From NCBI GenBank assembly GCA_025677835.1, contig JAIXMR010000032.1, positions 97,001-161,000 of the forward strand: a stretch of 64,000 nt of DNA. The letters run 5' to 3'. Positions 171 through 55,112 of the stretch are shown one piece after another. Positions within the stretch are counted from its first letter, which is position 1. Each line of letters opens with the position of its first letter. The notes beneath the pieces are model-generated. The model was not told the DNA's origin, made no database searches, and saw only the letters and a list, made by a program, of their open reading frames with translations. The translations under genes were made by a program, and so were the position numbers. The stretch is from Sporodiniella umbellata (lineage: Eukaryota > Mucoromycota > Mucoromycetes > Mucorales > Rhizopodaceae).

Positions 171-225
171 GTGCTAAACCTTTTTTTGATACTTCTTAAC
201 GTTTACTTCTTTTACAATTTATCTA
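1..225. other. AT-rich flank of element C
   Basis: Poly-T and poly-A runs, including about 30 T at 137-169. No coding signal was found. The TA target dinucleotide at 224-225 borders element C. Confidence 0.6.
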
Positions 226-5041: not shown

Positions 5042-5248
5042 TCACATTATCTTTTTTTACAATCATTGAACACCGTCTGTTGATATTTTTTCTTTTTCTT
5101 TTATATTTACACTCTTCTATATATACACTGTAATAAACGATAAAATCCATACATATTGATTTGTATGTATGATTTTATTGTCATTGGATTTTTTTAATTT
5201 TTTAATTTTTCTTTTTCTATGGACCGTCTGCATCCAACTTTAGCCTTT
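4893..5248. other. Convergent intergenic region with CA microsatellite
   Basis: 3' ends of two convergent genes. A CA dinucleotide run of about a dozen units lies near 5010-5035. No coding signal otherwise. Confidence 0.6.
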
Positions 5249-7552
5249 TTACCAGTCAATGTCGTTGACGTGAGCGCTGTCTTCTACGTCCACTTCGTCC
5301 GCGTGCCACTCAGCATCGTTGTTGTGAGGTTCTTCAAAGTTAAAGTCGCGGTACAGAGGTAGGTTTGAATGGCTGGTTTCTTCTACATCCACTTCGTCTG
5401 CGTGCCACTCAGCATCGTTGTTGTGAGGTTCTTCAAAGTTAAAGTCGCGGTACAGAGGTAGATTTGAATGGCTGGTTTCTTCTATATCTACTTCGTCTGC
5501 GTGCCATTCAGCATCGTTGTTGTGAGAGTCGCTAGAAGTCCAACCGTAGTTATTGTGGTCTTCTTGCCAGTCAGCGTCGTTGACGTGAGCGCTGTCTTCT
5601 ACGTCCACTTCGTCCGCGTGCCACTCAGCATCGTTGTTGTGAGGTTCTTCAAAGTTAAAGTCGCGGTACAGAGGTAGATTTGAATGGCTGGTTTCTTCTA
5701 TATCTACTTCGTCTGCGTGCCATTCAGCATCGTTGTTGTGAGAGTCGCTAGAAGTCCAACCGTAGTTATTGTGGTCTTCTTGCCAGTCAGCGTCGTTGAC
5801 GTGAGCGCTGTCTTCTACGTCCACTTCGTCCGCGTGCCACTCAGCATCGTTGTTGTGAGGTTCTTCAAAGTTAAAGTCGCGGTACAGAGGTAGGTTTGAA
5901 TGGCTGGTTTCTTCTACATCCACTTCGTCTGCGTGCCACTCAGCATCGTTGTTGTGAGGTTCTTCAAAGTTAAAGTCGCGGTACAGAGGTAGGTTTGAAT
6001 GGCTGGTTTCTTCTACATCCACTTCGTCTGCGTGCCACTCAGCATCGTTGTTGTGAGGTTCTTCAAAGTTAAAGTCGCGGTACAGAGGTAGATTTGAATG
6101 GCTGGTTTCTTCTATATCTACTTCGTCTGCGTGCCATTCAGCATCGTTGTTGTGAGAGTCGCTAGAAGTCCAACCGTAGTTATTGTGGTCTTCTTGCCAG
6201 TCAGCGTCGTTGACGTGAGCGCTGTCTTCTACGTCCACTTCGTCCGCGTGCCACTCAGCATCGTTGTTGTGAGGTTCTTCAAAGTTAAAGTCACGGTACA
6301 GAGGTAGGTTTGAATGGTTGGCTTCTTCTATATCTACTTCGTCTGCGTGCCATTCAGCATCGTTGTTGTGAGAGTCGCTAGAAGTCCAACCGTAGTTATT
6401 GTGGTCTTCTTGCCAGTCAGCGTCGTTGACGTGAGCGCTGTCTTCTACGTCCACTTCGTCCGCGTGCCACTCAGCATCATTGCTGTGGGACGGTATGTCA
6501 TCCAAAACAGAGTTAGAGCGATCTTCCCATTCTGTTTGTGAGGAGGAATTAGCAGTTTCTAGCGGAGCGTCATTTGAATGCCACTCTGCATTACTATGTT
6601 GTTCTGTACTGCCTGTTTCTTGCCACTCAGAAAGATTTTCGTGAAATGTGGGTAGTATATAGTTATCAGAAGACTTCCACTCGTTACTGTGATTTTCTTC
6701 TTCTTCCCATTCAGCTTGGTTACTATCAGCCGAAGGTGGTATATATGGGTCATTTGAGTGCCAGCTAGAGCCGGTTTGTTCGTAATTACTATGAGAATCA
6801 GCTTGTTGCTCTTGTGAATCAATTGAGCGTTTAATTTTGAAGGATGTCGAGTCTGCCTGACATTGTTGGTTGTTTCCATAGGCGGTAATATGTACATGAT
6901 AGTTGCCTAAATAAATTTTAGTGAAAATTTAGGTTAAGAGCCACGCTTATACAAAGAGATGTGTAAATATCTCTTTGAAAGTCTTGTCTTTTTCGTTCTT
7001 CTATTGTTGTGGATTTTTTTTCTTTTTTACTTACCAGACGATTGTCCATCCGAAGGAAATTGAATTTCATTTGTGGCACCACGTTGGGCATCTGTTGTTT
7101 AATTGTTAAAGGCTATTTATGGCACACATGTATTGTAAATTGTGTAATTACCAAAAGCGCCCAAATGAACCGATCTGTTTTGGTCGGACACCAATGTAAT
7201 ATTTACTTGTTTTAAAAAATCTGAGGATTGCCAAGCTACAATATGTTTCGATTTTTCGTCAAAAATAAGGCCTATTTGTGTGTATGTATTAAAGGATTAG
7301 AATTAGTGATTCTAGCAATAAAATTAATCCTTACCTTGGTCTGCTGGGTATGTGATCCTAAAGTCTATCAAAAAGTTAAGAATTCAGAAGGTTTAGTTTT
7401 CTTTTTTCGTATTTACCTTGACAAATATCTTGTAAAGATACATCGTCAGCATGGCTTCCTGGATAGTTGAAAACAGGCGATCCAGAAACAATTCGGTTTG
7501 CTTGGAGTACTAAGCTTACTGCAAACGTTATACTTGCCCAGTTTGATTTCAT
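5249..7552 (-). CDS. Secreted Kre9/KNH-domain protein with acidic Trp/His tandem repeats
   Basis: Five exons on the minus strand: 7552-7417, 7364-7335, 7271-7152, 7091-7035 and 6906-5249, giving 666 aa in frame. The N-terminus (MKSNWASITFAVSLVLQANR) is a signal peptide. Residues about 45-125 resemble the Kre9/Knh1-type fungal surface domain: FRITYPADQG, VNITLVSDQ, then SSGNYHVHITAYG. The rest is low complexity and ends in tandem repeats built from (H/S)NNDAEWHADEVD, alternating 33-aa and 39-aa versions. No C-terminal hydrophobic GPI signal is seen; the protein ends in Trp. Inference: a secreted or wall-associated protein whose repeat number can vary by recombination. The function of the repeats is unknown; their His/Asp/Glu density could bind metal. 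Confidence 0.8.
5256..6480. repeat. Tandem coding repeats, 99-bp and 117-bp units (216-bp higher order)
   Basis: The 3' half of the KNH-like gene. Units of 99 bp (ending NLPLYRDFNFEEP) and 117 bp (ending NNYGWTSSDS) alternate. The pair gives a 216-bp period seen between 5468 and 5684 and again between 6098 and 6314. Neighbouring units differ by only a few bases, which points to recent expansion or conversion. Confidence 0.9.
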
Positions 7553-20538: not shown

Positions 20539-20570
20539 TACAGTCAAACCTATGGAATTTGGCGTTTTCT

Positions 20571-20633
20571 CAAAAATAAATGGCGGAAAGACAAATATAA
20601 ATGTCGGAAAGTCAAAAATAAATGTCATGAGTT
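20571..20633. repeat. Subterminal 21-bp direct repeats in the arm terminus
   Basis: Three tandem 21-bp units begin at 20571, 20592 and 20613. Each starts with CAAAAATAAATG or CAAATATAAATG; the first two end in GGAAAG(A/T). The same block occurs at the other three arm ends of elements A and B. Such repeats are usual transposase binding sites in Tc1/mariner elements. Confidence 0.75.
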
Positions 20634-20823
20634 TAAATTGTTTTTGTCCACTTTGGTTAAAACAATTGTCGGAACCAGCTAACTAAAATTGACGGGAAGA
20701 TTGCACCTGTTTTTGTCCCTCTCTCTTCCTAATAAAAATATAACATAATGATGAATATTTTTTTTTTATGAAGATGGACAGGAAAACATTTTTAATGAAG
20801 AAGGAGAAAAAGTTTATGATCCG

Positions 20824-22196
20824 ATGGAGGATGTTTTAACACATATCGATGATCCCAACATAGTTCTTGAAACAATTATTAGCCGACAAACTTACTTGAG
20901 CGTTAAGCGCCCCGAAAAAATTGCTGAAGAGTTCTCAGTTAAAAAGCAGTCGAAACCTAGTAAGTTGAAGCCATCAGTGAAGTTATACAACAATTACAGC
21001 GACTTGACCAGAGAAACATTTATAGACCGTATGCTCGAAAATCCTCAAGAGCGTGGACTAGTGGCCAAGGTTGCAAGAGACTTAAATATTAATTACCGCG
21101 CTGCGTTAAGATGGTGAAAGTATTACGAAGGGACAGAAGAGGTTGCGTATAAAAAGTCTGAACAAAACAATGGTCCGAAAAGCTCATTTACAACCGAGCA
21201 TAACGAGTATATAAAGGAGCTGCTTGATAATGACCCCCAGTTATATTCAGACAACATAATAAATAGTTTGACTGAGTGATTTGAAGACTTTACTATATCA
21301 AGGTCGCAACTTAATAACCATTTACGAAACACAATGCTCATCACTGTGAAAAAGCCGATGTTTGAACCTGAAGTCAGAAACTCAGTGGGAAACCTATAGA
21401 CGAGATTCGAGTGGTTTATGGAATGGAAAGATTCTGATGTGGATTTTACAAAAAAATTGTATTTTCGTTGATGAAGCCGGGTTTGATATTAATATGAGAA
21501 TTAATTGGGCTAGATCAAAAAGTGGCAGCTCTGCTATAGTAAAACAACCAAAAACTAGAGCGCAATCTCATACCATTATCGGGGCTATTCACTCGTCTAG
21601 CGTTGTTCACGTTGTCATAAGAAAACCTCCACCAAGAAAAGAAACACAGGCTGCTAAAAAAAAAAAGAGAAAAGCTAATAATGGAAAGAAGAGAACCGCA
21701 ACCGAGATTAGTACAGAGGATCCAGAAATTGACGACGATCCTGTCGATAATAAGCCAACACCAAAAGGTACGACTACTGCTCATTTTATCAAGTATTGAC
21801 TGTGCTTGATATCACAATGTAGTAACAGCCTGGACTAGAGCCTGTATACAACAGAACGAGCTTCTTAATGTAATGGATCTTGATGGAACTTTTAAGGGAA
21901 GTTACATCGTTATGGATAATGCTTCTATTCATAAATCCAAGCCGATGTTGCGGAAAATTGAAAGTAAAGGCTACAAAGTCATGTATCTACCTCCTTATTC
22001 GCCTGAATTGAACCCCATTGAACAATTTTGGGCAATAGTTAAAGGGAAAATGAAGCGTGATCGGCTTATGAGTGAAGAAAATTTATCTAGTAGAATTGGC
22101 GATGCCTGTAATGATGTACTCATCAGTGATCTTTATAGCTTTTGTAGTCACTCTAAACGTCAAATCATTAAATGCTATAATAAAACACCGTTCTAA
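20824..22196 (+). pseudogene. Tc1-like (DD34E) transposase, left arm of A, broken
   Basis: An N-terminal helix-turn-helix part (MEDVLTHIDDPNIVLE to NYRAALRW) is followed by in-frame TGA at 21117, a second TGA near 21279, and a TAG near 21399. Both TGAs sit where related proteins would be expected to have Trp. A frameshift in an A run precedes FVDEAGFD. The catalytic triad can be read as DEAGF, VMDNASIHK and NPIEQFW, with 34 residues between the second D and the E (DD34E, Tc1-like). Further frame breaks lie near 21800-21870. A ten-T run at 20758-20767 also shifts the natural upstream start, which is intact in element B. It is not translatable as one protein. Confidence 0.85.
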
Positions 22197-22263
22197 TATG
22201 CGCATGTTTCTTTTAAATAAATGTTTATTTTTTAAACGACAAACGTCTATGAATATCCCTTTG

Positions 22264-23006
22264 GTCGTAGTCGTAGTCGTAGTCACGATTGTAGTCGCAG
22301 TCACGATCGTAGTCGTAGTCGTAGTCGTAGTCGTAGTCGTAGTCGTAGTCGTAGTCGTAGTCGTAGTCGTAGTCGCAGTCGTAGTCGTAGTCGTAGTCGT
22401 AGTCGTAGTCGTAGTCGTAGTCGTAGTCGTAGTCGCAGTCACGATCGTAGTCGTAGTCGTAGTCGTAGTCGTAGTCGCAGTCGTAGTCGTAGTCGTAGTC
22501 GTAGTCGTAGTCGTAGTCGTAGTCGCAGTCACGATCGTAGTCGTAGTCGTAGTCGTAGTCGTAGTCGTAGTCGTAGTCGTAGTCGTAGTCGTAGTCGTAG
22601 TCGTAGTCGTAGTCGCAGTCACGATCGTAGTCGTAGTCGTAGTCGTAGTCGTAGTCGTAGTCACGATCGTAGTCGTAGTCGTAGTCGTAGTCGTAGTCGT
22701 AGTCGTAGTCGTAGCCGTAGTCGTAGTCGTAGTCGTAGTCGTAGTCGTAGTCGCAGTCGTAGTCGTAGTCGTAGTCGTAGTCGTAGTCGTAGTCGTAGTC
22801 GTAGTCGCAGTCACGATCGTAGTCGTAGTCGTAGTCGTAGTCGCAGTCACGATCGTAGTCGTAGTCGTAGTCGTAGTCGTAGTCGTAGTCGTAGTCACGA
22901 TCGTAGTCGTAGTCGTAGTCGTAGTCGTAGTCGTAGTCGTAGTCGCAGTCACCATCGTAGTCGTAGTCGTAGTCGTAGTCGTAGTCGTAGTCACGATCGT
23001 AGTCGC
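22264..23006. repeat. GTCGTA hexamer array, left arm of A
   Basis: About 743 bp of GTCGTA repeats, broken at irregular intervals by the variant GTCGCAGTCACGATC. Five of six frames are open, reading Val-Val, Arg-Ser, Asp-Tyr, Thr-Thr and Leu-Arg; only the TCG-TAG frame has stops. The open frames are a consequence of the repeat and are not taken as genes. Confidence 0.95.
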
Positions 23007-23050
23007 TTTTAGAGGTTTTTTTATCCAAACAATCAAAAAAAGCTAAAAGG

Positions 23051-23771
23051 ATGTCTAGTGAAGGTATGAATCTCATTTCGCTGAATATATCATTAATTAA
23101 CTTTTTATTCTTAAGATACAAATTCATTTACTTTACCATGGAACTGGAAGCCTGGTTCTGATTTAATGAGCAAGCTGTTGTTCAGTGATCCCACGGTTGT
23201 GAACTTGGTTGTGCAATCATTATTAGGTAGTATACTTGTCTATTATAAATGTACTGGCTTTTAATACGCATACTATATTATAGGTACAGACATTCCAGCA
23301 GATAGTTATGCTGTAGCCTCAAATGAGTGGGCAGATGAATTCGATAGTACATTTATAGTATACATTCCGCAAAATGAAAACGTTAGCAGATGTATACCTA
23401 TAGTCATTAATACTCAAGAAGTAGTTGATTCTGATTCGATGTCAAACACGATTTTGTTTTGTAGGCGTGTTTATGAGAAATTTAAGATTTTGCCAACCGT
23501 TTTGATCATCCCTACCAAGTCTATCAACAGTGAAGAATTAGGTATTAATGAAGGCTCATTTTTGATACCACTTAAATCTACGTTTTGGGCGTACAAGTGT
23601 TTTTTATTTTCTCCCTCTGGTATTAGAAGCGCAGATGACAGAATCATACCTACCTTAGTTACACTATGTCGGTTTATTTCAAATCCCAACAAAATAATTT
23701 CCTTATATGAGACTGAATCTCATAATATTTGCTTAACTTATGAAGCAAAGAATTATGTTAAAGAAAAGTAA
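23051..23771 (+). CDS. 203-aa PD-(D/E)XK-family paralogue lacking the catalytic Glu (element A)
   Basis: Exons 23051-23063, 23116-23226 and 23284-23771 join in frame to 203 aa and the reading frame is intact. The first 65 or so residues (to ASNEWAD) are nearly identical to the convergent 340-aa gene because they lie in the inverted arms. After that the sequence diverges. At the metal-binding strand it has PIVINTQ where the partner has PILIEFQ, so the Glu of the D...E-x-Q signature is Asn. The fold positions TVLIIPTKS and FWAYKCFLFS still align with the partner. The protein lacks the partner's 140-residue C-terminal extension. Inference: a catalytically dead homologue kept as an open frame, possibly a regulator or inhibitor of the partner. 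Confidence 0.7.
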
Positions 23772-23784
23772 AAAATAAAATATT

Positions 23785-24916
23785 TTATTGTTTCTTTCGT
23801 TTTTGTAGATGATAGTAAGATGTCTTTAGGTTGTGTGAAGATGAATATGATTTGAAAAGTCCTTGTGCTTTTCCTTCATCGTATATATGCTTCCAATTTC
23901 TATTTTTCCCAGCTTTGCTTTTAGATTCAATAAATAGAATATCATCTTTGGTGTATGCATCCTCGCTAGTGTTGAATCGGCTTAATTCAGCTGCCTTCGT
24001 ACGCTCTATCAGATGTTTGCTTTGTTCGCTTATTAGCACAAAGCTTTCACTAATATAGCCTTTAATTTTTTTCACAGCTTCTCCTGGTATCTTGTCATCT
24101 TTATCAACAACATCTTCGATTCCTCTTTTTATGTTTTCTAGAAGCGGCTCCATCGATTCTACAGACATATTTTTTAGGTCTGACTCCTTCATTGTTAGAT
24201 CCTTAGAGATTTGGAAAAGAAGACGTACGGTAGGATCGAATCGATATTTTAGTGAAGTCAAAGACGCAGCATTACTAGTCAAAAAGTACCCCATAGCTAT
24301 TATTGGGTTCATTGGAGACTGGCCGATATATTCCAATATAGAATTTGATGATATCAAAAAGCATTTCTTTGCCCAGAATTTGGATTCAATTTCTAGAAAC
24401 GGTTTTTTATCAGCAACAACAAACTCTTTCTCAACTTCAGTGCTTGAAAAGCCTTTGATGGCAAAGATGAGAACGATTGGATATACTTTGTATCGACGGT
24501 ATGCTGAAAGTGAATAGTTTATAACTCTATTCATAAATTCATGATTGACTTGATTTTGGAATTCAATCAAGATGGGTGGTTCTGTTTTCGTTGGTTTGCC
24601 AGCTGCATAAACGATGTCAGATCTTGTCCCATCCGCCCACTCATTTGAGGCTACAGCATAACTATCTGCTGGAATGTCTGTACCTATAATATAGTATGCG
24701 TATTAAAAGCCAGTGCATTTATAATAGACAAGTATACTACCTAATAATGATTGCACAACCAAGTTCACAACCGTGGGATCACTGAATAACAGCTTGCTCA
24801 TTAAATCAGAACCAGGCTTCCGGTTCCATGGTAAAGTAAATGAATTTGTATCTTAAGAATAAAAAGTTAATTAATGATATATTCAGCGAAATGAGATTCA
24901 TACCTTCACTAGACAT
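23785..24916 (-). CDS. 340-aa Rpn-like PD-(D/E)XK nuclease-family protein (element A cargo)
   Basis: Exons 24916-24904, 24851-24741 and 24683-23785 give 340 aa, intact. Residues about 70-120 carry RSDIVYAAGK and, on the next strand, PILIEFQNQ. This is the D ... E-x-Q arrangement of PD-(D/E)XK nucleases of the Rpn/PDDEXK_2 type, also used by transposase-like recombination-promoting nucleases. A helix (FMNRVINYSLSAYRRY) and the strand YPIVLIFAIKG follow, as in that fold. The C-terminal 140 residues are Lys/Glu-rich and helical and end in a basic tail (HLQKRKKQ), perhaps for DNA binding. It ends 13 bp from the stop of the convergent paralogue. Catalytic activity is inferred from motifs only. Confidence 0.75.
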
Positions 24917-24960
24917 CCTTTTAGCTTTTTTTGATTGTTTGGATAAAAAAACCTCTAAAA

Positions 24961-25715
24961 GCGACTACGACTACGACTACGACTACGACTACGACTACGA
25001 CTACGACTACGACTACGACTACGACTACGACTACGACTGCGACTACGACTACGACTACGACTACGACTACGACTACGACTACGACTACGACTACGACTAC
25101 GACTACGACTACGACTACGATCGTGACTGCGACTACGACTACGACTACGACTACGACTACGACTACGACTACGACTACGACTACGACTACGACTACGACT
25201 ACGACTACGATCGTGACTGCGACTACGACTACGACTACGACTACGACTACGACTACGACTACGACTGCGACTACGACTACGACTACGACTACGACTACGA
25301 TCGTGACTGCGACTACGACTACGACTACGACTACGACTACGACTACGACTACGACTACGACTGCGACTACGACTACGACTACGACTACGACTACGACTAC
25401 GACTACGACTACGACTGCGACTACGACTACGACTACGACTACGACTACGACTACGACTACGACTACGACTACGACTACGACTACGACTACGACTACGATC
25501 GTGACTGCGACTACGACTACGACTACGACTACGACTACGACTACGACTACGACTACGACTACGACTACGACTACGACTACGACTACGACTACGACTACGA
25601 CTACGACTACGACTACGACTACGACTACGACTACGACTACGACTACGACTACGACTACGGCTACGACTACGACTACGACTACGACTACGATCGTGACTGC
25701 GACTACGACTACGAC
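24961..25715. repeat. Hexamer array, right arm of A (TACGAC orientation)
   Basis: About 755 bp of the same hexamer in inverse orientation, with the same recurring interruption (GATCGTGACTGC). It mirrors the left array but differs in the spacing of interruptions, so the two arrays evolve in length independently of the flanking arm sequence. Confidence 0.95.
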
Positions 25716-25782
25716 CAAAGGGATATTCATAGACGTTTGTCGTTTAAAAAATAAACATTTATTTAAAAGAAACATGCGCATA

Positions 25783-27156
25783 TTAGAACGGTGTTTTATT
25801 ATAGCATTTAATGATTTGACGTTTAGAGTGACTACAAAAGCTATAAAGATCACTGATGAGTACATCATTACAGGCATCGCCAATTCTACTAGATAAATTT
25901 TCTTCACTCATAAGCCGATCACGCTTCATTTTCCCTTTAACTATTGCCCAAAATTGTTCAATGGGGTTCAATTCAGGCGAATAAGGAGGTAGATACATGA
26001 CTTTGTAGCCTTTACTTTCAATTTTCCGCAACATCGGCTTGGATTTATGAATAGAAGCATTATCCATAACGATGTAACTTCCCTTAAAAGTTCCATCAAG
26101 ATCCATTACATTAAGAAGCTCGTTCTGTTGTATACAGGCTCTAGTCCAGGCTGTTACTACATTGTGATATCAAGCACAGTCAATACTTGATAAAATGAGC
26201 AGTAGTCGTACCTTTTGGTGTTGGCTTATTATCGACAGGATCGTCGTCAATTTCTGGATCCTCTGTACTAATCTCGGTTGCGGTTCTCTTCTTTCCATTA
26301 TTAGCTTTTCTCTTTTTTTTTTTTAGCAGCCTGTGTTTCTTTTCTTGGTGGAGGTTTTCTTATGACAACGTGAACAACGCTAGACGAGTGAATAGCCCCG
26401 ATAATGGTATGAGATTGCGCTCTAGTTTTTGGTTGTTTTACTATAGCAGAGCTGCCACTTTTTGATCTAGCCCAATTAATTCTCATATTAATATCAAACC
26501 CGGCTTCATCAACGAAAATACAATTTTTTTGTAAAATCCACATCAGAATCTTTCCATTCCATAAACCACTCGAATCTCGTCTATAGGTTTCCCACTGAGT
26601 TTCTGACTTCAGGTTCAAACATCGGCTTTTTCACAGTGATGAGCATTGTGTTTCGTAAATGGTTATTAAGTTGCGACCTTGATATAGTAAAGTCTTCAAA
26701 TCACTCAGTCAAACTATTTATTATGTTGTCTGAATATAACTGGGGGTCATTATCAAGCAGCTCCTTTATATACTCGTTATGCTCGGTTGTAAATGAGCTT
26801 TTCGGACCATTGTTTTGTTCAGACTTTTTATACGCAACCTCTTCTGTCCCTTCGTAATACTTTCACCATCTTAACGCAGCGCGGTAATTAATATTTAAGT
26901 CTCTTGCAACCTTGGCCACTAGTCCACGCTCTTGAGGATTTTCGAGCATACGGTCTATAAATGTTTCTCTGGTCAAGTCGCTGTAATTGTTGTATAACTT
27001 CACTGATGGCTTCAACTTACTAGGTTTCGACTGCTTTTTAACTGAGAACTCTTCAGCAATTTTTTCGGGGCGCTTAACGCTCAAGTAAGTTTGTCGGCTA
27101 ATAATTGTTTCAAGAACTATGTTGGGATCATCGATATGTGTTAAAACATCCTCCAT
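25783..27156 (-). pseudogene. Tc1-like transposase, right arm of A, broken
   Basis: Mirror copy of the left-arm transposase. It shares the same two TGA stops, the TAG, the frameshift before DEAGF and the ten-base homopolymer near the natural start. It differs by one A in the lysine-coding run (12 here, 11 in the left arm), which adds one more frameshift. Confidence 0.85.
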
Positions 27157-27441
27157 CGGATCATAAACTTTTTCTCCTTCTTCATTAAAAATGTTTTCCT
27201 GTCCATCTTCATAAAAAAAAAATATTCATCATTATGTTATATTTTTATTAGGAAGAGAGAGGGACAAAAACAGGTGCAATCTTCCCGTCAATTTTAGTTA
27301 GCTGGTTCCGACAATTGTTTTAACCAAAGTGGACAAAAACAATTTAAACTCATGACATTTATTTTTGACTTTCCGACATTTATATTTGTCTTTCCGCCAT
27401 TTATTTTTGAGAAAACGCCAAATTCCATAGGTTTGACTGTA

Positions 27442-27870
27442 GACAAAAAAAAAAGAAAACGAGTCAAAAATAAAGCGCGAAATTTCAATTTTGAAAAAAT
27501 CCAGTTGCTAGAGGTCACAAACAACCCAGAAAGTAGGAAAATGTATATTGTATTGGAGTACACCAGCGGAAAAATTGATTGGAGGCTATATAGTCAACCA
27601 ACTCTATCAATAAACAAATACAAAGGCTTGCTTATAGACATTATCAATGGGCTTGACTATTACAAGACACCACAGTCAGTCTTTAATTTCCCAATGCTTC
27701 TTTATAGTGCGCAGCAAGGGTATAGTTTATCGCGGTATTAAGCCTGCCAACATTCTGCTTTCTTTTCTTTTTTGTAAAAGAGTTCTTTATTTTAAAATAG
27801 AATTCATTATCACACATCGCAGAGAGGTGGGACTAAGAAATTGCTATATACAATTAAAACAGATGATCTA
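27442..27870 (+). pseudogene. Kinase pseudogene, middle piece
   Basis: After the element, the frame reads FEKIQLLEVTNNPESRKMY, then IVLEYTSGK and LLIDIINGLDY. A former intron of about 60 bp with a lost donor follows, then QGIVYRGIKPANIL. In an active kinase the last block would be HRDxKPxN; here the HRD is YRG. The coding resemblance fades before the LINE remnant begins at about 27915. Confidence 0.75.
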
Positions 27871-27914
27871 ATAGCCAACATTCCGATAAACCTTTTCTTC
27901 TTTTGGTGGAACAA

Positions 27915-30478
27915 CTTTTTTTTTTGAACTGAGTATTGTTGCAATATGGTGTAAAGCTCATTTGACTATAAATTTTGTGCTGTAAGGTACTTGTTTGATA
28001 ATGTATTGCCAGTAGTTCGACCATATGTTATAATGGATGACCAGCAATATCGTTTTAAAAGCCGTCTTGGACAGATAGTGAATATCTTTTGAAGTCGTCC
28101 ATTTGGTTAGAGCCTCAAAGACCATGTCATCGGTAATATTGTATGTAGGGAAACGGTAATTCATCACCGTTCTCCGTACTTCTTGTTTTTAGGGACATCT
28201 TACCAAGATATGCAGTTCATCGTCATACGACTCGCGACATACTCGACGGACAGGACTATCTATCACCCTCAAGAGGTAGAGAAAGGCCGAGTGGGGCAGC
28301 TTTCGACATAGTGTTCTATAACCAAGCGTATGAGCATTGAGTATCATCTAGATTTTCTAGAAATTGATTTGCGATTTAACCTTGAGGTAGTCATTTGGTT
28401 TCGTGTCGAGCATTTTGATACGTCTAAACTTCTTGTCGAAGCGTAACCAATTTTCTAACTGATATAGTTGGGTAATCCAGCTACCTTATGTCATTCTTCT
28501 TCTTGAATCCTCAACATCTTCGGTTATATGCTTCTACAGGAAATCAGAAAGACGTATTGTACGCTATCTGTTTCTTTAATCTTGTGCAGAGCTATGGTTT
28601 CAACGTATATTCGCTTTCTATTTTTAAGCGTAGCCTTCTAGCATCTGTGCCTAGTACTAGAAAATCGGATGTTTCAAATTTGGGATGTCTATACAACCAG
28701 TGTTTCTCTGGTATTTCACTGATCATGTATTTCAGAGGCATTTCTAAAAGAGTCAACAGTGCGGTAGCAGAGAGGTCAACTTTAAAGTGAAAGTGATCGA
28801 GGGCTCTGCAACATGAGTAGATCAGAGAATATTCGGGTACCGTCTCATGTCGTCTGAATTCTGGTACAAAAAAAGGCGCATATGGTCCCTCTTTAATAGG
28901 GGACAAAGTAGACATACGATATCGGAGCAATTGAGTCACCAAAGGAGGATTGTTGCTCATATCGAAAACATGTCTCAAATGTCTAATCTGCAACAATAGT
29001 TGCTGAGTTTCAGGGTCTAAAAGACCTAAGCCTGTGTCGTCTATGGGTGCACTCATTTTCGCAAAAGACGCTTGAGGTTCTTTTTTTGCCATACGCAATT
29101 GAAAATTAAGCTCCTGAGCGTTTGCATGTATTTCTTAGTTGTATTCAGAAGGCGAAGCTGACACTGTACAACGTTTCTTTGATTGACCGTACATTTCATA
29201 TATAATCCAAGATAACTGAAAGGAGTATCAGAGCATACAGAGTGAATGGTCGTGATATTTTGATCTAATAGAAATTGTTTCCAGTCTTCGTTTATGATCC
29301 CGGGCAATAAAAAGGCTTATGTTTTGTAGCCATTGAGTTGGTCATTAGAAACGAATGCTTAGCGAATGAGGTGAGTCTGTACGTGATGAAAGTCGCCTTG
29401 GTTTCGAATCAGTACACATATATCGTCAGCAAACACCATTATCTTCACTGTTTTAATTCTAACAGATAAGGGCAAATTATGGCCTCTTATTAGTTTATCT
29501 TGGATGATACTCTTAAGGAGAGGTTCCAATGCTAGATTGAACAATATCGGCGACAGTAGGTCTCCTTGACTCAATCCATGTTTCTACGTCACTGTTGCAG
29601 TGAAGTATCCATTGAAGTCGATTTGCATTTCATTGTTAAAAAAAAAAAAGAATATTTAGACATTCAATAAAAGAGATATTGAAACCAAAGAGATGCAGTA
29701 CTTTTTCAAGGTATTGGGGATGTACACGATCATAAGCCTTTTCTTGATCCAAAAGTAGGCCTATGCCAGGGTATTTCCTATACTTAGCTTGATGTAGAAT
29801 CAAATTCAGAATTAAACCATTGACTCCAATGTATCTTGATTTCATAAACCCAGTTTGTGTTCTATCAATCAAGCCTCCTACTACCATATTCACCCTCGAA
29901 CCTATAATTTTTGTAAAGATCTTGGCATCACAGTCGATTAGCAATATGAGCGCCAGCTTTTTAGGTCAGATAGGCCCCCCCTTCTTTTGAGAGAAGTCGA
30001 ACCCTAATGTCTTTCCATGAAAAAACACCTTCTGTTCAATTGGAGCTTCATTATATATTGCTAATAACAGTGGATACAAACAAGACATGCTAAAAAGCAT
30101 ACGAAGGAAAGGGTAGCCTAGGCCATCAGATCCTCTGTTTGGGACTACGTCTTGCTTGGTCTTGAATATCTTCAATAGCAATCTTTTCTATTAGTAGGTC
30201 ATTGTCTTCTGGGGGACAGATGATGATTAACATTGATTTGGTTTAAAAACGTCCACCTCAACTTTATCTATTAGGTCGGTGTCATATAAATACCGATATA
30301 ATTTATGAGTGTTTTCTCTCATGGTAACTGGATCTGATGAAGGCGAACCGTCGTCTAGCGCATGGACAGACTGGATACCTTGTTTAATTGTGTGCTTCTT
30401 ATGAATCCGTTTGAGGAACCCAGCTGATCTCTCACTGTTTTCCCGCCATTTTAGCATTCTGCTTTTAGAAAACTGTGT
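27915..30478 (-). mobile_element. Degenerate L1-like LINE, 5'-truncated
   Basis: Minus-strand fragments form a reverse transcriptase: RTQTGFMKSRYIG, LLLDQEKAYDRVHP (RT motif A region), MSQGDLLSPILFNLALEPL, and MVFADDICVLI (the FADD catalytic box). C-terminal fragments continue to about 27958 (FPTYNITDDMVFEALTKW). A T run at 27915-27925 on the plus strand is the likely poly-A tail of the insertion. Frameshifts and stops occur throughout, and the 5' end is missing. It interrupts the kinase pseudogene just before its DFG region. I could not define a target-site duplication, so both edges are approximate. Confidence 0.75.
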
Positions 30479-30911
<433 letters not shown>

Positions 30912-46977: not shown

Positions 46978-48433
46978 GCTTTTTTCCGTTTTAAAAAAAG
47001 GAGTATAATTCCTGATTTCTACAAGACGAATAAAAAAAAAAATATAAGACTGAAAACGAAAAAAATAAAATAAAACAAAATGAAATAGGTGTCCAGGGCA
47101 ATGACTGTGTGTTACCTTTGAAAAAAAGGCACTTTTTATTTTAAACTGCCTAGACTTGCGCCACACAAATCAATAACTTGAACCAATTACACTCTCCAAA
47201 CGATGAAAAATAGATTTTGAGGCTTTTCTTGTATAAAAAAAAGCCTTTTTGAATATACATGGCTGTATTACAGGCTCAACTTTTCGCATTGTTACAGATA
47301 ACGCGAAGCTCCGCAGTTGAAAAAGAAAGGAGGTTCTCAACTCTATTGGGCACCGATTTATTTAGCGTCCTTTATACCTCGACTTAAACACTGCAGTTAT
47401 TGGCTTTCATAAACTTAGTATACGTATACTTTGATATGAGCATTGATAAACTATTCCAGCTGTCCAAAACAAAAGTTTCACAAATCACATTACATGATTA
47501 CAGGAGTCTTCCAAATGTCGTACACACATGTTTTTTTTTTCTTTTTACGTTGTATTGAGCAATCTCTCCTGTAAACTTTACTTTCCATGGCAGTAAGGAA
47601 ATATTGACTGTAAAAAACGATGCAAGATTCAAAGGTACTGGAAAATGCCTGTAAAGGCTTTTAATTGAAAGTCACTTAGTTGCATAAATAGGCAGTTTGT
47701 GGCTGTACAGCCACATATCATTCGCTCTCATAAGACACTAAAATATATGGAGTTTTTGCACATTCCCTTTTTAGCTTTCTTCATATGAAGTTTGGATTTA
47801 CTAAATAGTAATGAAACGCGCGACACGAAAGCATTAAAATATATATACAAAAAGCTTTGAGAATTATATCAGACAATTGTTACCTAACAGATAGTATGTA
47901 TAACTGGATATTCATAAGAATCCGTACCTCGTCTATATATATATATATATCATTTATGTAAAGTGCTTCCAAAATCAATGTTGTATATTTTTGTATAGTT
48001 TGTATTATAAAATGCGACATTGGTTTTGGAAAAACTATAGTTAATTGCGGATTGTTTGTGAATGACGTGCATACCGGGAACCTCAAGGTTCATATTACTT
48101 CATTTTTAGTCGTTTAAAATCGGTTTTGTTTTTGTTTTTAAAAAATTAGTAACAATACTTGAACTGTATTTAAAAGCTTTTTCATATTCTCAAGTTCAAC
48201 ATCCAAAGATACACTTAGCAAAATAGCAGGTATTTCTTAGCTTCTTGTGTCAAAAGCAAGCCAAGTAAACAGACATGGCTCTGTTTGATCCAAGAAAAGA
48301 GGGTCAACACGATAAACACTCGTTTTTTATGTTCAAGTGAATTTGTTACTATGAAATCACAGACTTTCGGTTTTGAAAATCTGCATAACGCTAATACATA
48401 AGACAAGCCAATTATAGCTAAGTGAAATGTATA
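46978..48433. other. Intergenic, 1.45 kb
   Basis: Promoter and 5' UTR of the Rho GEF and the sequence up to the TA target of element B (48432-48433). A TA run lies at about 47936-47952. No coding region, tRNA or other repeat recognised. Confidence 0.5.
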
Positions 48434-48640
48434 CAGTCAAACCTATGGAATTTGGCGTTTTCTCAAAAATAAATGGCGGAAAGACAAATATAAATGTCGG
48501 AAAGTCAAAAATAAATGTCATGAGTTTAAATTGTTTTTGTCCACTTTGGTTAAAACAATTGTCGGAACCAGCTAACTAAAATTGACGGGAAGATTGCACC
48601 TGTTTTTGTCCCTCTCTCTTCCTAATAAAAATATAACATA

Positions 48641-50082
48641 ATGATGAATATTTTTTTTTATGAAGATGGACAGGAAAACATTTTTAATGAAGAAGGAGAA
48701 AAAGTTTATGATCCGATGGAGGATGTTTTAACACATATCGATGATCCCAACATAGTTCTTGAAACAATTATTAGCCGACAAACTTACTTGAGCGTTAAGC
48801 GCCCCGAAAAAATTGCTGAAGAGTTCTCAGTTAAAAAGCAGCCGAAACCTAGTAAGTTGAAGCCATCAGTGAAGTTATACAACAATTACAGCGACTTGAC
48901 CAGAGAAACATTTATAGACCGTATGCTCGAAAATCCTCAAGAGCGTGGACTAGTGGCCAAGGTTGCAAGAGACTTAAATATTAATTACCGCGCTGCGTTA
49001 AGATGGTGAAAGTATTACGAAGGGACAGAAGAGGTTGCGTATAAAAAGTCTGAACAAAACAATGGTCCGAAAAGCTCATTTACAACCGAGCATAACGAGT
49101 ATATAAAGGAGCTGCTTGATAATGACCCCCAGTTATATTCAGACAACATAATAAATAGTTTGACTGAGTGATTTGAAGACTTTACTATATCAAGGTCGCA
49201 ACTTAATAACCATTTACGAAACACAATGCTCATCACTGTGAAAAAGCCGATGTTTGAACCTGAAGTCAGAAACTCAGTGGGAAACCTATAGACGAGATTC
49301 GAGTGGTTTATGGAATGGAAAGATTCTGATCTGGATTTTACAAAAAACTGTTGATGAAGCCGGGTTTGATATTAATATGAGAATTGATTGGGCTAGATCA
49401 AAAAGTGGCAGCTCTGCTATAGTAAAACAACCAAAAACTAGAGCACAATCTCATACCATTATCGGGGCTATTCACTCGTCTAGCGTTGTTCACGTTGTCA
49501 TAAGAAAACCTCTACCAAGAAAAGAAACACAGGCTGCTAAAAAAAAAAAAGAGAGAAAAGCTAATAATGGAAAGAAGAGAACCGCAACCGAGATTAGTAC
49601 AGAGGATCCAGAAATTGACGACGATCTTGTCGATAATAGGCCAACACCAAAAGGTATGACTACTGCTCATTTTATCAGGTATTGACTGTGCTTGATATCA
49701 CAATGTAGTAACAGCCTGGACTAGAGCCTGTATACAACAGAACGAGCTTCTTAATGTAATGGATCTTGATGGAACTTTTAAGGGAAGTTACATCGTTATG
49801 GATAATGCTTCTATTCATAAATCCAAGCCGATGTTGCGGAAAATTGAAAGTAAAGGCTACAAAGTCATGTATCTACCTCCTTATTCGCCTGAATTGAACC
49901 CCATTGAACAATTTTGGGCAATAGTTAAAGGGAAAATGAAGCGTGATCGGCTTATGAGTGAAGAAAATTTATCTAGTAGAATTGGCGATGCCTGTAATGA
50001 TGTACTCATCAGTGATCTTTATAGCTTTTGTAGTCACTCTAAACGTCAAATCATTAAATGCTATAATAAAACACCGTTCTAA
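48641..50082 (+). pseudogene. Tc1-like transposase, left arm of B, broken
   Basis: Here the natural start is preserved: MMNIFFYEDGQENIFNEEG precedes the MED start seen in A, because the T run has nine rather than ten bases. The same two in-frame TGA codons and the TAG follow. A 9-bp deletion relative to A removes residues just before DEAGF. The DD34E triad text is otherwise present (DEAGF, VMDNASIHK, NPIEQFW). Not translatable as one protein. Confidence 0.85.
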
Positions 50083-50149
50083 TATGCGCATGTTTCTTTT
50101 AAATAAATGTTTATTTTTTAAACGACAAACGTCTATGAATATCCCTTTG

Positions 50150-51000
50150 GTCGTAGTCGCAGTCGCAGTCACGATCGTAGTCGTAGTCGTAGTCGTAGTC
50201 GTAGTCGTAGTCGTAGTCGTAGTCGTAGTCGTAGTCGTAGTCGTAGTCGTAGTCGTAGTCGTAGTCGTAGTCGTAGTCGCAGTCACGATCGTAGTCGTAG
50301 TCGTAGTCGTAGTCGTAGTCGTAGTCGTAGTCGTAGTCGTAGTCGCAGTCACGATCGTAGTCGTAGTCGTAGTCGTAGTCGTAGTCGTAGTCGTAGTCGT
50401 AGTCGTAGTCGTAGTCGCAGTCACGATCGTAGTCGTAGTCGTAGTCGTAGTCGTAGTCGTAGTCGCAGTCACGATCGTAGTCGTAGTCGTAGTCGTAGTC
50501 GTAGTCGTAGTCGTAGTCGTAGTCGTAGTCGTAGTCGTAGTCGTAGTCGTAGTCGTAGTCGTAGTCGTAGTCGTAGTCGCAGTCACGATCGTAGTCGTAG
50601 TCGTAGTCGTAGTCGTAGTCGTAGTCGTAGTCGTAGTCGTAGTCGCAGTCACGATCGTAGTCGTAGTCGTAGTCGTAGTCGTAGTCGTAGTCGTAGTCGT
50701 AGTCGTAGTCGTAGTCGTAGTCGTAGTCGTAGTCGTAGTCGTAGTCGTAGTCGTAGTCGTAGTCGCAGTCACGATCGTAGTCGTAGTCGTAGTCGTAGTC
50801 GTAGTCGTAGTCGTAGTCGTAGTCGTAGTCGTAGTCGTAGTCGTAGTCGCAGTCACGATCGTAGTCGTAGTCGTAGTCGTAGTCGTAGTCGTAGTCGTAG
50901 TCGTAGTCGTAGTCGTAGTCGTAGTCGTAGTCGTAGTCGTAGTCGTAGTCGTAGTCGTAGTCGTAGTCGTAGTCGTAGTCGTAGTCGCAGTCGTAGTCGC
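50150..51000. repeat. GTCGTA hexamer array, left arm of B
   Basis: About 851 bp, with the same GTCGCAGTCACGATC interruption recurring. Longer than either array in A. Confidence 0.95.
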
Positions 51001-51045
51001 TTTTAGAGGTTTTTTTTATCCAAACAATCAAAAAAAGCTAAAAGG

Positions 51046-51783
51046 ATGTCTAGTGAAGGTATGAATCTCATTTCGCTGAATATATCATTAATTAACTTTT
51101 TATTCTTAAGATACAAATTCATTTACTTTACCATGGAACTGGAAGCCTGGTTCTGATTTAATGAGCAAGCTGTTATTCAGTGATCCCACGGTTGTGAACT
51201 TGGTTGTGCAATGAGAGACATCTTGATCTTTTATAATTTTGCTATCCATCTAAGTTTATGAAAAAAAAAGAAATCGTGTTATCTAAGGAATTATCTAAAT
51301 TTAAAAAGTGTGGCATTATCAAGATATTTTCTATCTAAAAAGAAACAAGATTCCAAAGGAATTGAAGTGACTGGACAACCTAATATATTTTATAGAAAAA
51401 AGAGATTTGACAATAAGAAAGTAATCTCAAGATCCCGATAATCTATCTAATCCGAGATATCTCTCAATCATTATTAGGTAGTATACTTGTCTATTATAAA
51501 TGCACTGGCTTTTAATACGCATACTATATTATAGGTACAGACATCCCAGCAGATAGTTATGCTGTAGCCTCAAATGAGTGGGCGGATGGGACAAGATCTG
51601 ACATTGTTTATGCAGCTGGCAAACCAACGAAAATAGAACCACCCATCTTGATTGAATTCCAAAATCAAGTCAATCATGAATTTATGAATAGTTATAAACT
51701 ATTCACTTTCAGCATACCGTCGATACAAAGTATACCCAATCGTTCTCATCTTTGCCATCAAAGGCTTTTCAAGCACTGATAGT
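51046..51783 (+). pseudogene. Truncated nuclease-family gene, element B
   Basis: Exon 1 (51046-51058) and the start of exon 2 match element A. Exon 2 is interrupted by the 253-bp insertion at 51213. Exon 3 matches the 340-aa nuclease (RSDIVYAAGK, PILIEFQNQ). A 2-bp deletion after HEFMN then shifts the frame, and the sequence stops matching after GFSSTD at about 51783, where it joins the inverted paralogue. Non-functional. Confidence 0.8.
51213..51465. mobile_element. 253-bp MITE-like insertion
   Basis: Starts GAGAGACATCTTGATC and ends with the inverted form (GATATCTCTC). AAT flanks both sides as a 3-bp duplication. The uninterrupted sequence in element A and in the right arm of B reads GTGCAATCATTATT, which fixes the boundaries. 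It is AT-rich, has no open frame, and its superfamily is unassigned. Confidence 0.8.
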
Positions 51784-52400
51784 GTAACTAAGGTAGGTAT
51801 GATTCTGTCATCTGCGCTTCTAATACCAGAGGGAGAAAATAAAAAACACTTGTACGCCCAAAACGTAGATTTAAGCGGTATCAAAAATGAGCCTTCATTA
51901 ATACCTAATTCTTCACTGTTGATAGACTTGGTAGGGATGGTCAAAACGGTTGGCAAAATCTTAAATTTCTCATAAACACGCCTACAAAACAAAATCGTGT
52001 TTGACATCGAATCAGAATCAACTACTTCTTTAGTATTAATGACTATAGGTATACATCTGCTAACATTTTCATTTTGCGGAATGTATACTATAAATGTACT
52101 ATCGAATTCATCTGCCCACTCAGTTGAGGCTACAGCATAACTATCTGCTGGAATGTCTGTACCTATAATATAGTATGCGTATTAAAAGCCAGTGCATTTA
52201 TAATAGACAAGTATACTACCTAATAATGATTGCACAACCAAGTTCACAACCGTGGGATCACTGAATAACAGCTTGCTCATTAAATCAGAACCAGGCTTCC
52301 AGTTCCATGGTAAAGTAAATGAATTTGTATCTTAAGAATAAAAAGTTAATTAATGATATATTCAGCGAAATGAGATTCATACCTTCACTAGACATCCTTT
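51784..52400 (-). pseudogene. Truncated inactive paralogue, element B
   Basis: Minus-strand mirror of the left gene: exons 1 and 2 lie in the right arm, and exon 3 matches the 203-aa paralogue of element A (SMSNTILFCRRVYEKFKILP, FWAYKCFLFSPSGIRSADD). After IIPTLVTL the frame runs into the truncated nuclease sequence and ends as a chimera. It has lost its natural C-terminus. Confidence 0.75.
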
Positions 52401-52440
52401 TAGCTTTTTTTGATTGTTTGGATAAAAAAAACCTCTAAAA

Positions 52441-53394
52441 GCGACTACGACTGCGACTACGACTACGACTACGACTACGACTACGACTACGACTACGACT
52501 ACGACTACGACTACGACTACGACTACGACTACGACTACGACTACGACTACGATCGTGACTGCGACTACGACTACGACTACGACTACGACTACGACTACGA
52601 CTACGACTACGACTACGATCGTGACTGCGACTACGACTACGACTACGACTACGACTACGACTACGACTACGACTACGACTACGACTACGACTACGACTAC
52701 GACTACGACTACGACTACGACTACGACTACGATCGTGACTGCGACTACGACTACGACTACGACTACGACTACGACTACGACTACGACTACGACTACGATC
52801 GTGACTGCGACTACGACTACGACTACGACTACGACTACGACTACGACTACGACTACGACTACGACTACGATCGTGACTGCGACTACGACTACGACTACGA
52901 CTACGACTACGACTACGACTACGACTACGACTACGACTACGACTACGACTACGACTGCGACTACGACTACGACTACGACTACGACTACGACTACGACTAC
53001 GACTACGACTACGATCGTGACTGCGACTACGACTACGACTACGACTACGACTACGACTACGACTACGACTACGACTACGACTACGACTACGACTACGACT
53101 ACGACTACGACTACGACTACGACTACGACTACGACTACGACTACGACTACGACTACGACTACGACTACGACTACGACTACGACTACGACTACGACTACGA
53201 CTACGACTACGACTACGACTACGACTACGACTACGACTACGACTACGACTGCGACTACGACTACGACTACGACTACGACTACGACTACGACTACGACTAC
53301 GACTACGATCGTGACTGCGACTACGACTACGACTACGACTACGACTACGACTACGACTACGACTACGATCGTGACTGCGACTACGACTACGACC
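52441..53394. repeat. Hexamer array, right arm of B
   Basis: About 954 bp, the longest of the four arrays. It includes an uninterrupted TACGAC stretch of over 200 bp at about 53040-53250. Confidence 0.95.
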
Positions 53395-53460
53395 AAAGGG
53401 ATATTCATAGACGTTTGTCGTTTAAAAAATAAACATTTATTTAAAAGAAACATGCGCATA

Positions 53461-54903
53461 TTAGAACGGTGTTTTATTATAGCATTTAATGATTTGACGT
53501 TTAGAGTGACTACAAAAGCTATAAAGATCACTGATGAGTACATCATTACAGGCATCGCCAATTCTACTAGATAAATTTTCTTCACTCATAAGCCGATCAC
53601 GCTTCATTTTCCCTTTAACTATTGCCCAAAATTGTTCAATGGGGTTCAATTCAGGCGAATAAGGAGGTAGATACATGACTTTGTAGCCTTTACTTTCAAT
53701 TTTCCGCAACATCGGCTTGGATTTATGAATAGAAGCATTATCCATAACGATGTAACTTCCCTTAAAAGTTCCATCAAGATCCATTACATTAAGAAGCTCG
53801 TTCTGTTGTATACAGGCTCTAGTCCAGGCTGTTACTACATTGTGATATCAAGCACAGTCAATACCTGATAAAATGAGCAGTAGTCATACCTTTTGGTGTT
53901 GGCCTATTATCGACAAGATCGTCGTCAATTTCTGGATCCTCTGTACTAATCTCGGTTGCGGTTCTCTTCTTTCCATTATTAGCTTTTCTCTCTTTTTTTT
54001 TTTTTAGCAGCCTGTGTTTCTTTTCTTGGTAGAGGTTTTCTTATGACAACGTGAACAACGCTAGACGAGTGAATAGCCCCGATAATGGTATGAGATTGTG
54101 CTCTAGTTTTTGGTTGTTTTACTATAGCAGAGCTGCCACTTTTTGATCTAGCCCAATCAATTCTCATATTAATATCAAACCCGGCTTCATCAACAGTTTT
54201 TTGTAAAATCCAGATCAGAATCTTTCCATTCCATAAACCACTCGAATCTCGTCTATAGGTTTCCCACTGAGTTTCTGACTTCAGGTTCAAACATCGGCTT
54301 TTTCACAGTGATGAGCATTGTGTTTCGTAAATGGTTATTAAGTTGCGACCTTGATATAGTAAAGTCTTCAAATCACTCAGTCAAACTATTTATTATGTTG
54401 TCTGAATATAACTGGGGGTCATTATCAAGCAGCTCCTTTATATACTCGTTATGCTCGGTTGTAAATGAGCTTTTCGGACCATTGTTTTGTTCAGACTTTT
54501 TATACGCAACCTCTTCTGTCCCTTCGTAATACTTTCACCATCTTAACGCAGCGCGGTAATTAATATTTAAGTCTCTTGCAACCTTGGCCACTAGTCCACG
54601 CTCTTGAGGATTTTCGAGCATACGGTCTATAAATGTTTCTCTGGTCAAGTCGCTGTAATTGTTGTATAACTTCACTGATGGCTTCAACTTACTAGGTTTC
54701 GGCTGCTTTTTAACTGAGAACTCTTCAGCAATTTTTTCGGGGCGCTTAACGCTCAAGTAAGTTTGTCGGCTAATAATTGTTTCAAGAACTATGTTGGGAT
54801 CATCGATATGTGTTAAAACATCCTCCATCGGATCGTAAACTTTTTCTCCTTCTTCATTAAAAATGTTTTCCTGTCCATCTTCATAAAAAAAAATATTCAT
54901 CAT
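53461..54903 (-). pseudogene. Tc1-like transposase, right arm of B, broken
   Basis: Mirror of the left-arm copy, with the same nine-base homopolymer, the same 9-bp deletion before DEAGF and the same stop codons. It differs by one base in the lysine-coding A run (13 here, 12 in the left arm). Confidence 0.85.
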
Positions 54904-55112
54904 TATGTTATATTTTTATTAGGAAGAGAGAGGGACAAAAACAGGTGCAATCTTCCCGTCAATTTTAGTTAGCTGGTTCCGACAATTGTTTTAACCAAAG
55001 TGGACAAAAACAATTTAAACTCATGACATTTATTTTTGACTTTCCGACATTTATATTTGTCTTTCCGCCATTTATTTTTGAGAAAACGCCAAATTCCATA
55101 GGTTTGACTGTA

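What the first reader, a model, noticed from the sequence alone, without database searches (positions are those of the whole stretch)
20541..27439. Giant palindromic Tc1-like transposon carrying two intact nuclease-family genes
Seen: CAGT...ACTG termini with TA duplication and two inverted arms of about 2.8 kb. Each arm has its own transposase pseudogene, hexamer array and the 5' end of a nuclease-family gene; a 1.3-kb core completes the two genes. Known: ordinary Tc1/mariner elements are 1-3 kb with one transposase and short termini. A near-perfect palindrome of this size should be unstable in most cells. Inference: a cargo-bearing element class, with the nuclease perhaps helping to process hairpins or cruciforms made by the arms.
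Basis: partly seen in the sequence, partly recalled or inferred. Interest (0 to 1): 0.9.

Follow-up and report, generated by a model that had tools for sequence, protein, structure and literature searches.

The report
Mirror-image fungal transposon with paired nucleases
A jumping gene in a bread-mould relative is built as two mirror-image halves, each with a dead transposase and the start of a nuclease-like gene (one with an intact active-site motif, one without), and its halves have stayed nearly identical while copies elsewhere changed, which suggests that they keep repairing each other.

Summary
Window 20541-27439 (CAGT...ACTG, TA on each side) is a 6.9-kb Tc1-type element (E1) with 2.8-kb inverted arms around a 1.3-kb core. 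A foldback artefact is very unlikely: different flanks, arms whose hexamer arrays differ, joined flanks that reopen a kinase-like frame, and two more copies (window 48432-55112; contig C14). The host is Sporodiniella umbellata (Mucorales), inferred from a contig-length match.

E1 is best read as an inverted dimer of a unit TIR-transposase-hexamers-nuclease. The transposase is broken in all three copies. One nuclease gene keeps a D...ExQ motif and matches bacterial Rpn nucleases by profile. Its twin lost both acids, as did relatives in three other Mucorales. So 'two intact nucleases' is half right.

The new point is concerted evolution: 27 of 29 variable sites in the outer 1.64 kb agree between the arms of each element but differ between elements. 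Tc1-like loci with long inverted arms recur in this genome, often with PD-(D/E)XK-looking genes (motif reading only). The hairpin idea is untested. A selfish nuclease/inactive-twin pair is the boldest reading not excluded, but the C14 copy has a stop codon in the twin.

The parts
20539..20540 (.). TA target-site duplication, left
   Evidence: joined flanks with one TA reopen a kinase-like frame
20541..23337 (+). Left arm: TIR, transposase pseudogene, hexamer array, 5' part of the inactive-twin gene
   Evidence: inverted match to the right arm, 97.3% over 2818 nt
20824..22196 (+). Left transposase pseudogene (Tc1-like, DDE_3; DD34E counted by eye; in-frame stops and a frame change)
22264..22992 (+). 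GTCGTA hexamer array, 121.5 units, upstream of the nuclease-family gene start
23051..23771 (+). Inactive-twin gene, three exons by eye (23051-23063, 23116-23226, 23284-23771), 203 aa; D and E of the nuclease motif lost (INTQ for IEFQ)
   Evidence: sequence; homologues and alignment
23338..24629 (.). Core: diverged 3' halves of the two convergent nuclease-family genes
23785..24916 (-). Rpn-like nuclease gene, three exons by eye (24916-24904, 24851-24741, 24683-23785), 340 aa, motif RSDIVY...ILIEFQ intact
24962..25715 (-). Hexamer array of the right arm, 125.7 units
24630..27439 (-). Right arm
25783..27156 (-). Right transposase pseudogene, with the stops of the left one
27440..27441 (.). TA target-site duplication, right
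48432..55112 (.). Second copy (E2), TA included: 2.9-kb arms, core shortened by an internal deletion so that both nuclease-family genes are truncated

Best explanation
E1 is a non-autonomous Tc1-type (TA-inserting, cut-and-paste) transposon that is an inverted dimer of a two-gene unit, TIR-transposase-hexamers-nuclease. SHOWN: ends, TA duplication, joined flanks with a reopened frame, three copies, symmetry, shared stops in the transposases, arms that change together. INFERRED: (1) an ancestral element with a transposase and an Rpn-like nuclease was duplicated head to head and has no inner ends now; (2) it moves as one unit by binding of a transposase, supplied in trans by another Tc1-like element, to the two outer ends; (3) the arms are kept alike by gene conversion, or by repair of one arm from the other, inside the element; (4) the two nuclease copies diverged where the arms stop matching: one kept the catalytic motif, the other became an inactive twin that still shares the N-terminal region. 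The nuclease most likely serves the element (DNA breaks that favour copying of the element or its arms); this last step is inference only and is the weakest.
For: Ends and TA. Joined flanks with one TA give an open frame VWAIKII-DKKKRKR...VLEY that aligns with kinase STK11 (sequence E 1.3e-4, best stretch 0.0034; only about 7 residues lie left of the junction). Copies E2 and E3. Only outer TIRs at up to 3 mismatches, none inside. Within-element differences in the outer arm are 0, 1 and 1 substitutions against 11-29 between elements; 27 of 29 gap-free variable columns agree between the arms of every element. Same number of stops at the same places in both arms of each element, one TGA in all three elements. 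Rpn profile match E 2.1e-6, probability 89%, 59 columns with the motif aligned; one relative, P0006, passes the PF04754 cut-off. Twin homologous to the nuclease, E 6.7e-27; E in 12 of 12 nuclease rows that cover the site, N in 7 of 7 twin rows (read). Equal longest-contig lengths suggest that nuclease and twin lie on one contig in Cokeromyces (P0007, P0020) and in one JGI record (P0002, P0023); spacing unknown.
Against: No intact transposase close enough to be the helper was seen: the nearest relatives outside E1-E3 are 75-76% identical in DNA. E1/E3 nuclease: 7 synonymous nt changes against 14 changed codons in 299, so no clear recent purifying selection. E1 and E3 cores differ by 2.4% but their outer arms by about 1.2%, which this model does not explain without exchange between elements. 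The inner 5' part of the nuclease genes is less homogenised: 5 of 11 columns agree. E1's own protein has no Pfam or NCBIfam hit. Structure prediction could not be run. No expression data.
Confidence: 0.72

Rival explanations
1. Assembly foldback chimera or mirrored contig.
For: Arms are nearly identical; no reads were available.
Against: Different flanks on the two sides with TA at both ends, flanks not repeated in the window (not tested genome-wide), arrays of different length in the two arms of E1 and of E2, element-specific changes at three loci, joined flanks with a kinase-like frame.
Confidence: 0.03
2. Composite transposon: two independent Tc1 copies that landed on either side of host genes and then moved together.
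For: Two transposases in inverted orientation; other inverted Tc1 pairs exist.
Against: Arms run past the transposase into both nuclease genes; no inner TIR at up to 3 mismatches; all three copies share the same arm-core junction.
Confidence: 0.1
3. Passive long-TIR element: the nuclease genes are common Mucorales genes captured by chance and do nothing for the element.
For: 45 nuclease-type loci in four searches, 29 of them not within 3 kb of a Tc1 hit; E1/E3 changes near neutral; E2 has both genes truncated yet keeps its arms; for E1's own nuclease family only 1 of 15 loci other than E1-E3 is near a Tc1 hit.
Against: 16 of 45 nuclease-type loci against 1 of 122 kinase loci within 3 kb of a Tc1 hit; nuclease and twin probably on one contig in two other records; the loss of acids is shared by twin relatives.
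Confidence: 0.35
4. The nuclease processes hairpins or cruciforms made by the arms.
For: RpnA is a DNA endonuclease (introduction of PMC10327210); long arms are present.
Against: The 1.3-kb spacer disfavours cruciforms (recalled); E2 keeps its arms with both nuclease genes truncated.
Confidence: 0.08

Closest known systems
Tc1-MP1 of Rhizopodaceae/Mucoraceae (PMC9977792; passages read)
   Same: Tc1-like DD34E transposase, same fungal families, named there for Rhizopus
   Different: The coordinates given there span about 1.7 kb; no inverted dimer and no nuclease mentioned in the passages seen
Mariner elements with an endonuclease and a methyltransferase or Fanzor1 (Bao and Jurka 2013, PMC3627910; passages read)
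   Same: Tc1/mariner element with TA duplication and an accessory nuclease gene
   Different: Other nuclease families (EcoRII-like catalytic domain, Fanzor), in virus-borne elements; no palindromic arms in the passages seen
Galileo / Foldback elements (PMC3573991; passages read)
   Same: [quoted passage not shown] exchange of sequence among copies proposed
   Different: P-element superfamily; TIRs up to about 1.25 kb; the longest-TIR copies lack the transposase ORF
Sleeping Beauty 'sandwich' vectors (PMC5715130; one passage read)
   Same: Inverted Tc1-type repeats on both sides of cargo, which raise payload
   Different: Engineered, with two complete pairs of repeats; E1 has outer ends only
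Bacterial Rpn nucleases with RpnS antitoxin (PMC10327210, preprint; abstract and introduction read)
   Same: Catalytic region by profile; a shorter product of the family blocks the nuclease
   Different: RpnS is the C-terminal domain of the same gene; here the twin is a separate gene sharing the N-terminal part

Membership tests
Tc1/mariner superfamily | TA target-site duplication and CAGT-type ends | tested here: met
Tc1/mariner superfamily | DDE_3 transposase, DD34E | tested here: met
   DDE_3 over cut-off in both arms; DD34E spacing counted by eye; the gene itself is broken
Composite transposon | Each arm is a complete element with its own inner end | tested here: not met
   no inner TIR at up to 3 mismatches
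Foldback-type element | Long, internally repetitive inverted arms | tested here: met
   architecture only, not relatedness
Rpn / PF04754 nucleases | Aligned D...ExQ motif and surrounding profile | tested here: met
   hhalign with E. coli RpnA, RpnB and RpnC: E 2.1e-6, probability 89%, 59 columns, shallow alignments; only 1 of 14 rows hits PF04754 and E1's own protein has no Pfam hit
Rpn / PF04754 nucleases | DNA cleavage | not testable with these tools
   needs protein
Rpn / PF04754 nucleases | PD-(D/E)XK fold | not tested
Fanzor-bearing mariner | OrfB_Zn_ribbon/TnpB-like protein | tested here: not met
   no Pfam family at E up to 0.1 in the two E1 nuclease-family proteins
Toxin-antidote selfish pair | Nuclease harmful alone, twin protective | not testable with these tools
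   expression assay needed; the C14 copy has a stop codon in the twin, which speaks against a strict need for it

The most novel reading that the evidence does not exclude
A palindromic transposon in which exchange between its own arms keeps the shared N-terminal region of a DNA-cutting nuclease and of its catalytically dead twin matched, so that the pair acts as a selfish cut-and-protect (poison-antidote or homing) module, and the mirror architecture is what maintains the match. The same arm-core-arm logic, with other PD-(D/E)XK families as cargo, may be an element class across Mucorales.
Probability: 0.12. Interest if true: 0.88.

Novelty: new variant of a known kind. Interest (0 to 1): 0.64.

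Why it matters
It shows, from three copies in one genome, a DNA transposon whose two halves change together, as sex-chromosome palindromes are known to do (recalled). That gives a small, countable system for studying gene conversion between inverted repeats and how long inverted repeats persist in a fungus. The nuclease with an active-site-less twin, found with the same loss in other Mucorales, makes a concrete test of whether eukaryotic transposons carry self-limiting or selfish nuclease pairs.

Tried and rejected
Foldback artefact and chance insertion of two Tc1 copies were considered and rejected (see rivals). Pfam and NCBIfam gave no family for E1's own nuclease. Solved-structure searches with the nuclease profiles gave nothing meaningful. 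The viral-contig scan confirmed no relative among 21 pattern matches. The other cargo family (RPDA...GEVK, A4) is not related to the E1 nuclease by profile and has no meaningful Pfam hit, so its PD-(D/E)XK label, like that of the other cargo types, rests on motif reading. Weak Pfam hits such as ISG65-75 were set aside as probable chance. Unselected genome stretches as a background for inverted repeats could not be fetched; the window alone served: outside E1 and E2 it shows one inverted pair of 100 nt or more (low-complexity filter on, rows inside E1's arrays not printed). Ten paper searches (open-licence papers only) listed no paper that, by title or start of abstract, describes such elements; of the listed papers I read passages or sections of four (PMC9977792, PMC5982828, PMC10327210, PMC5715130), the rest not; PMC3627910 and PMC3573991 were opened by recalled DOI. 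A further lead recalled from memory, 'Transposons to toxins', is not held.
Full report
WHAT IS THERE. The element (E1) lies at 20541-27439 with TA on both sides. Its arms match over 2818 nt at 97.3%; the outer 1128 nt are given as 100%. From outside in, each arm has a CAGTCAAACC terminus, a broken Tc1-like transposase, a GTCGTA hexamer array (121.5 and 125.7 units) and the 5' part of a nuclease-family gene. The 1292-nt core holds the diverged 3' halves of the two genes, which converge and end 13 nt apart. Read this way, the whole element is an inverted dimer of TIR-transposase-hexamers-nuclease. Exon limits are mine, by eye.

WHERE IT IS. The twin homologue P0018 is annotated as Sporodiniella umbellata on a contig of 214,233 bases, the length of contig C125, which holds the window. 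I infer that this is the host (Mucorales, Rhizopodaceae).

IS IT REAL. The two flanks differ and are not repeated in the window; uniqueness in the whole genome was not tested. Joined with one TA they give an open frame VWAIKII-DKKKRKR...VLEY. Typed as a protein this aligns with STK11 at E 1.3e-4 (best stretch 0.0034), with about 7 residues left of the junction. So E1 most likely entered a kinase-like gene, now degraded, as one unit. Two more copies exist: E2 at window 48432-55112, arms 2.9 kb, and E3 at C14, arms 2.09 kb at 99.86%. Arrays differ in length between the arms of E1 and of E2. E3's left arm has only about five units.

ARMS CHANGE TOGETHER. Over the first 1650 nt of arm, the two arms of E1, E2 and E3 differ by 0, 1 and 1 substitutions, while arms of different elements differ by 11-29. 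Of 29 gap-free variable columns in the outer 1640 nt, 27 agree between both arms of every element. All three copies share the same arm-core junction, so the dimer is most simply older than their divergence, and the changes were copied from arm to arm. In the inner 5' nuclease part only 5 of 11 columns agree, and one arm of E2 is longer there by 256 nt. Whether this is gene conversion, or resynthesis of one arm from the other at movement, cannot be told apart here. Also, the cores of E1 and E3 differ by 2.4% but their outer arms by only 19-20 substitutions in 1650 nt; I cannot explain this without some exchange between elements.

TRANSPOSASE. Both arms of each element carry the same stops, and one TGA is common to all three elements; frame changes add to this, and they are not all the same in both arms. 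The spread of E1-E3 therefore most likely used a transposase in trans; read-through of the shared stop is not excluded. Open Tc1-like frames exist in the genome: at C120 (L028) a TA-flanked palindrome with 1682-nt arms at 100% has a 401-aa open frame in each arm. It has different ends (CAGTGCTTCC) and is not shown to act on E1.

NUCLEASE AND TWIN. The 340-aa protein keeps RSDIVY...ILIEFQ. Of 16 relatives found, 8 bear a species name; the genera named (Rhizopus, Mycotypha, Cokeromyces, Mucor, Thamnidium) belong to Mucorales by my own knowledge. Its profile aligns with E. coli RpnA/B/C over this motif (59 columns, E 2.1e-6, probability 89%, shallow alignments); one of 14 rows passes the PF04754 cut-off. 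A C-terminal Myb-like look was noticed by eye only. The twin is homologous but has IVINTQ in place of ILIEFQ and no acid at the first position. Of the rows that cover the site, E is present in 12 of 12 nuclease rows and N in 7 of 7 twin rows, one of which, P0018, is E2's own gene (read). Named twin relatives outside this genome are Spinellus, Cokeromyces and Mucor saturninus. By equal longest-contig length, nuclease and twin may share a contig in Cokeromyces and in one JGI record; this is not proof, and the spacing is unknown. The N-terminal block of the M. saturninus twin is 92% (34 of 37) identical to the Thamnidium nuclease, 80% (41 of 51) to the Cokeromyces nuclease and 70% (39 of 56) to the Sporodiniella twin. 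This hints at homogenisation, and so at arms, in other species; the rows are few and no gene tree was built.

AGAINST FUNCTION. E1/E3 nuclease differences: 7 synonymous nt changes and 14 changed codons of 299. E2's core has an internal deletion that truncates both genes; E3's twin has a stop. So of the three copies only E1 has both frames open.

A WIDER CLASS? Several Tc1-like hits in this genome come as inverted pairs with equal scores. Of 39 stretches (E1, E2, L010-L046), 20 had inverted arms of at least 120 nt and 90% identity; 13 of these 20 showed one of five motif patterns, against 0 of 19 others. I wrote the patterns after reading open frames of these same loci, the stretches were chosen for Tc1 hits or inverted pairs, differ in length, and some overlap or are duplicates (L030/L031); so this describes, it does not test. 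TA/CAGT ends at both arm ends were seen for E1, E2, E3 (one end CAGT to TAGT), L012, L013, L028 and L041; the rest are decayed or not delimited. By coordinates, 16 of 45 nuclease-type loci against 1 of 122 kinase loci lie within 3 kb of a Tc1 hit (Fisher p about 1e-9, and about 1e-7 with query-bearing loci left out, 12 of 39). By type: RPDA...GEAK 8 of 13 (clustered at 9 kb, the others at 3 kb), E1 type 4 of 18 (3 of them E1-E3), ADG...ESSG 2 of 5, RRLDL...EFKK 2 of 9. Some loci are the two arms of one palindrome or duplicates, kinases are not matched for repeat-rich location, and all counts are lower bounds. So the link is firm for the first type and not shown for E1's own family beyond its three copies.

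MECHANISM. Most likely: TA cut-and-paste in trans of an inverted dimer, arms homogenised within the element, nuclease as accessory gene. The nuclease's job is inferred only. The twin as inhibitor is the boldest reading and is testable by expression.

NOVELTY. Long-TIR foldback-like elements, accessory nucleases in mariner elements, and Rpn inhibitor proteins are each known. A study of Rhizopus genomes reports Tc1/Mariner in all of them and used an inverted-repeat finder, without mention of such elements in the passages I saw (PMC5982828). I found no report of the combination, nor of arm-wise concerted evolution in a Tc1 element, in the ten searches listed under Tried and rejected; those cover open-licence papers only and most listed papers were not opened.

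Noticed in passing
L028 (contig C120), 1304-4818: TA-flanked palindrome with 100% identical 1682-nt arms, each with an open 401-aa Tc1-like transposase frame (DD34E by eye), and a 151-nt core: a possibly autonomous mirror element.
   Followed up: partly
window 5245-6487: Block of direct repeats (several overlapping matches, up to 98.6% identity).
   Followed up: no
L035/L036 (contig C8, about 38.0-48.6 kb): Inverted 1480-nt arms at 99.6% with transposase hits, around an array with a period of about 478 nt.
   Followed up: no
L030 and L031 (contig C160, 1-24 kb): Two near-identical (99.8% over 5.7 kb) stretches with long inverted arms and RPDA...GEVK genes and transposase pieces, one at the contig start.
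   Followed up: no
window 27442-30768: Kinase-like gene broken by E1 and apparently also by a reverse-transcriptase-like stretch near 29.6-30.0 kb (read by eye).
   Followed up: partly
window 22264-23005 and 24962-25715: The hexamer arrays end about 45 nt upstream of the start codons of both nuclease-family genes; long in E1 and E2, short in E3's left arm. Possible promoter effect.
   Followed up: no
window 218-345 and 1199-1337: Small inverted pair, 80.6% identity.
   Followed up: no
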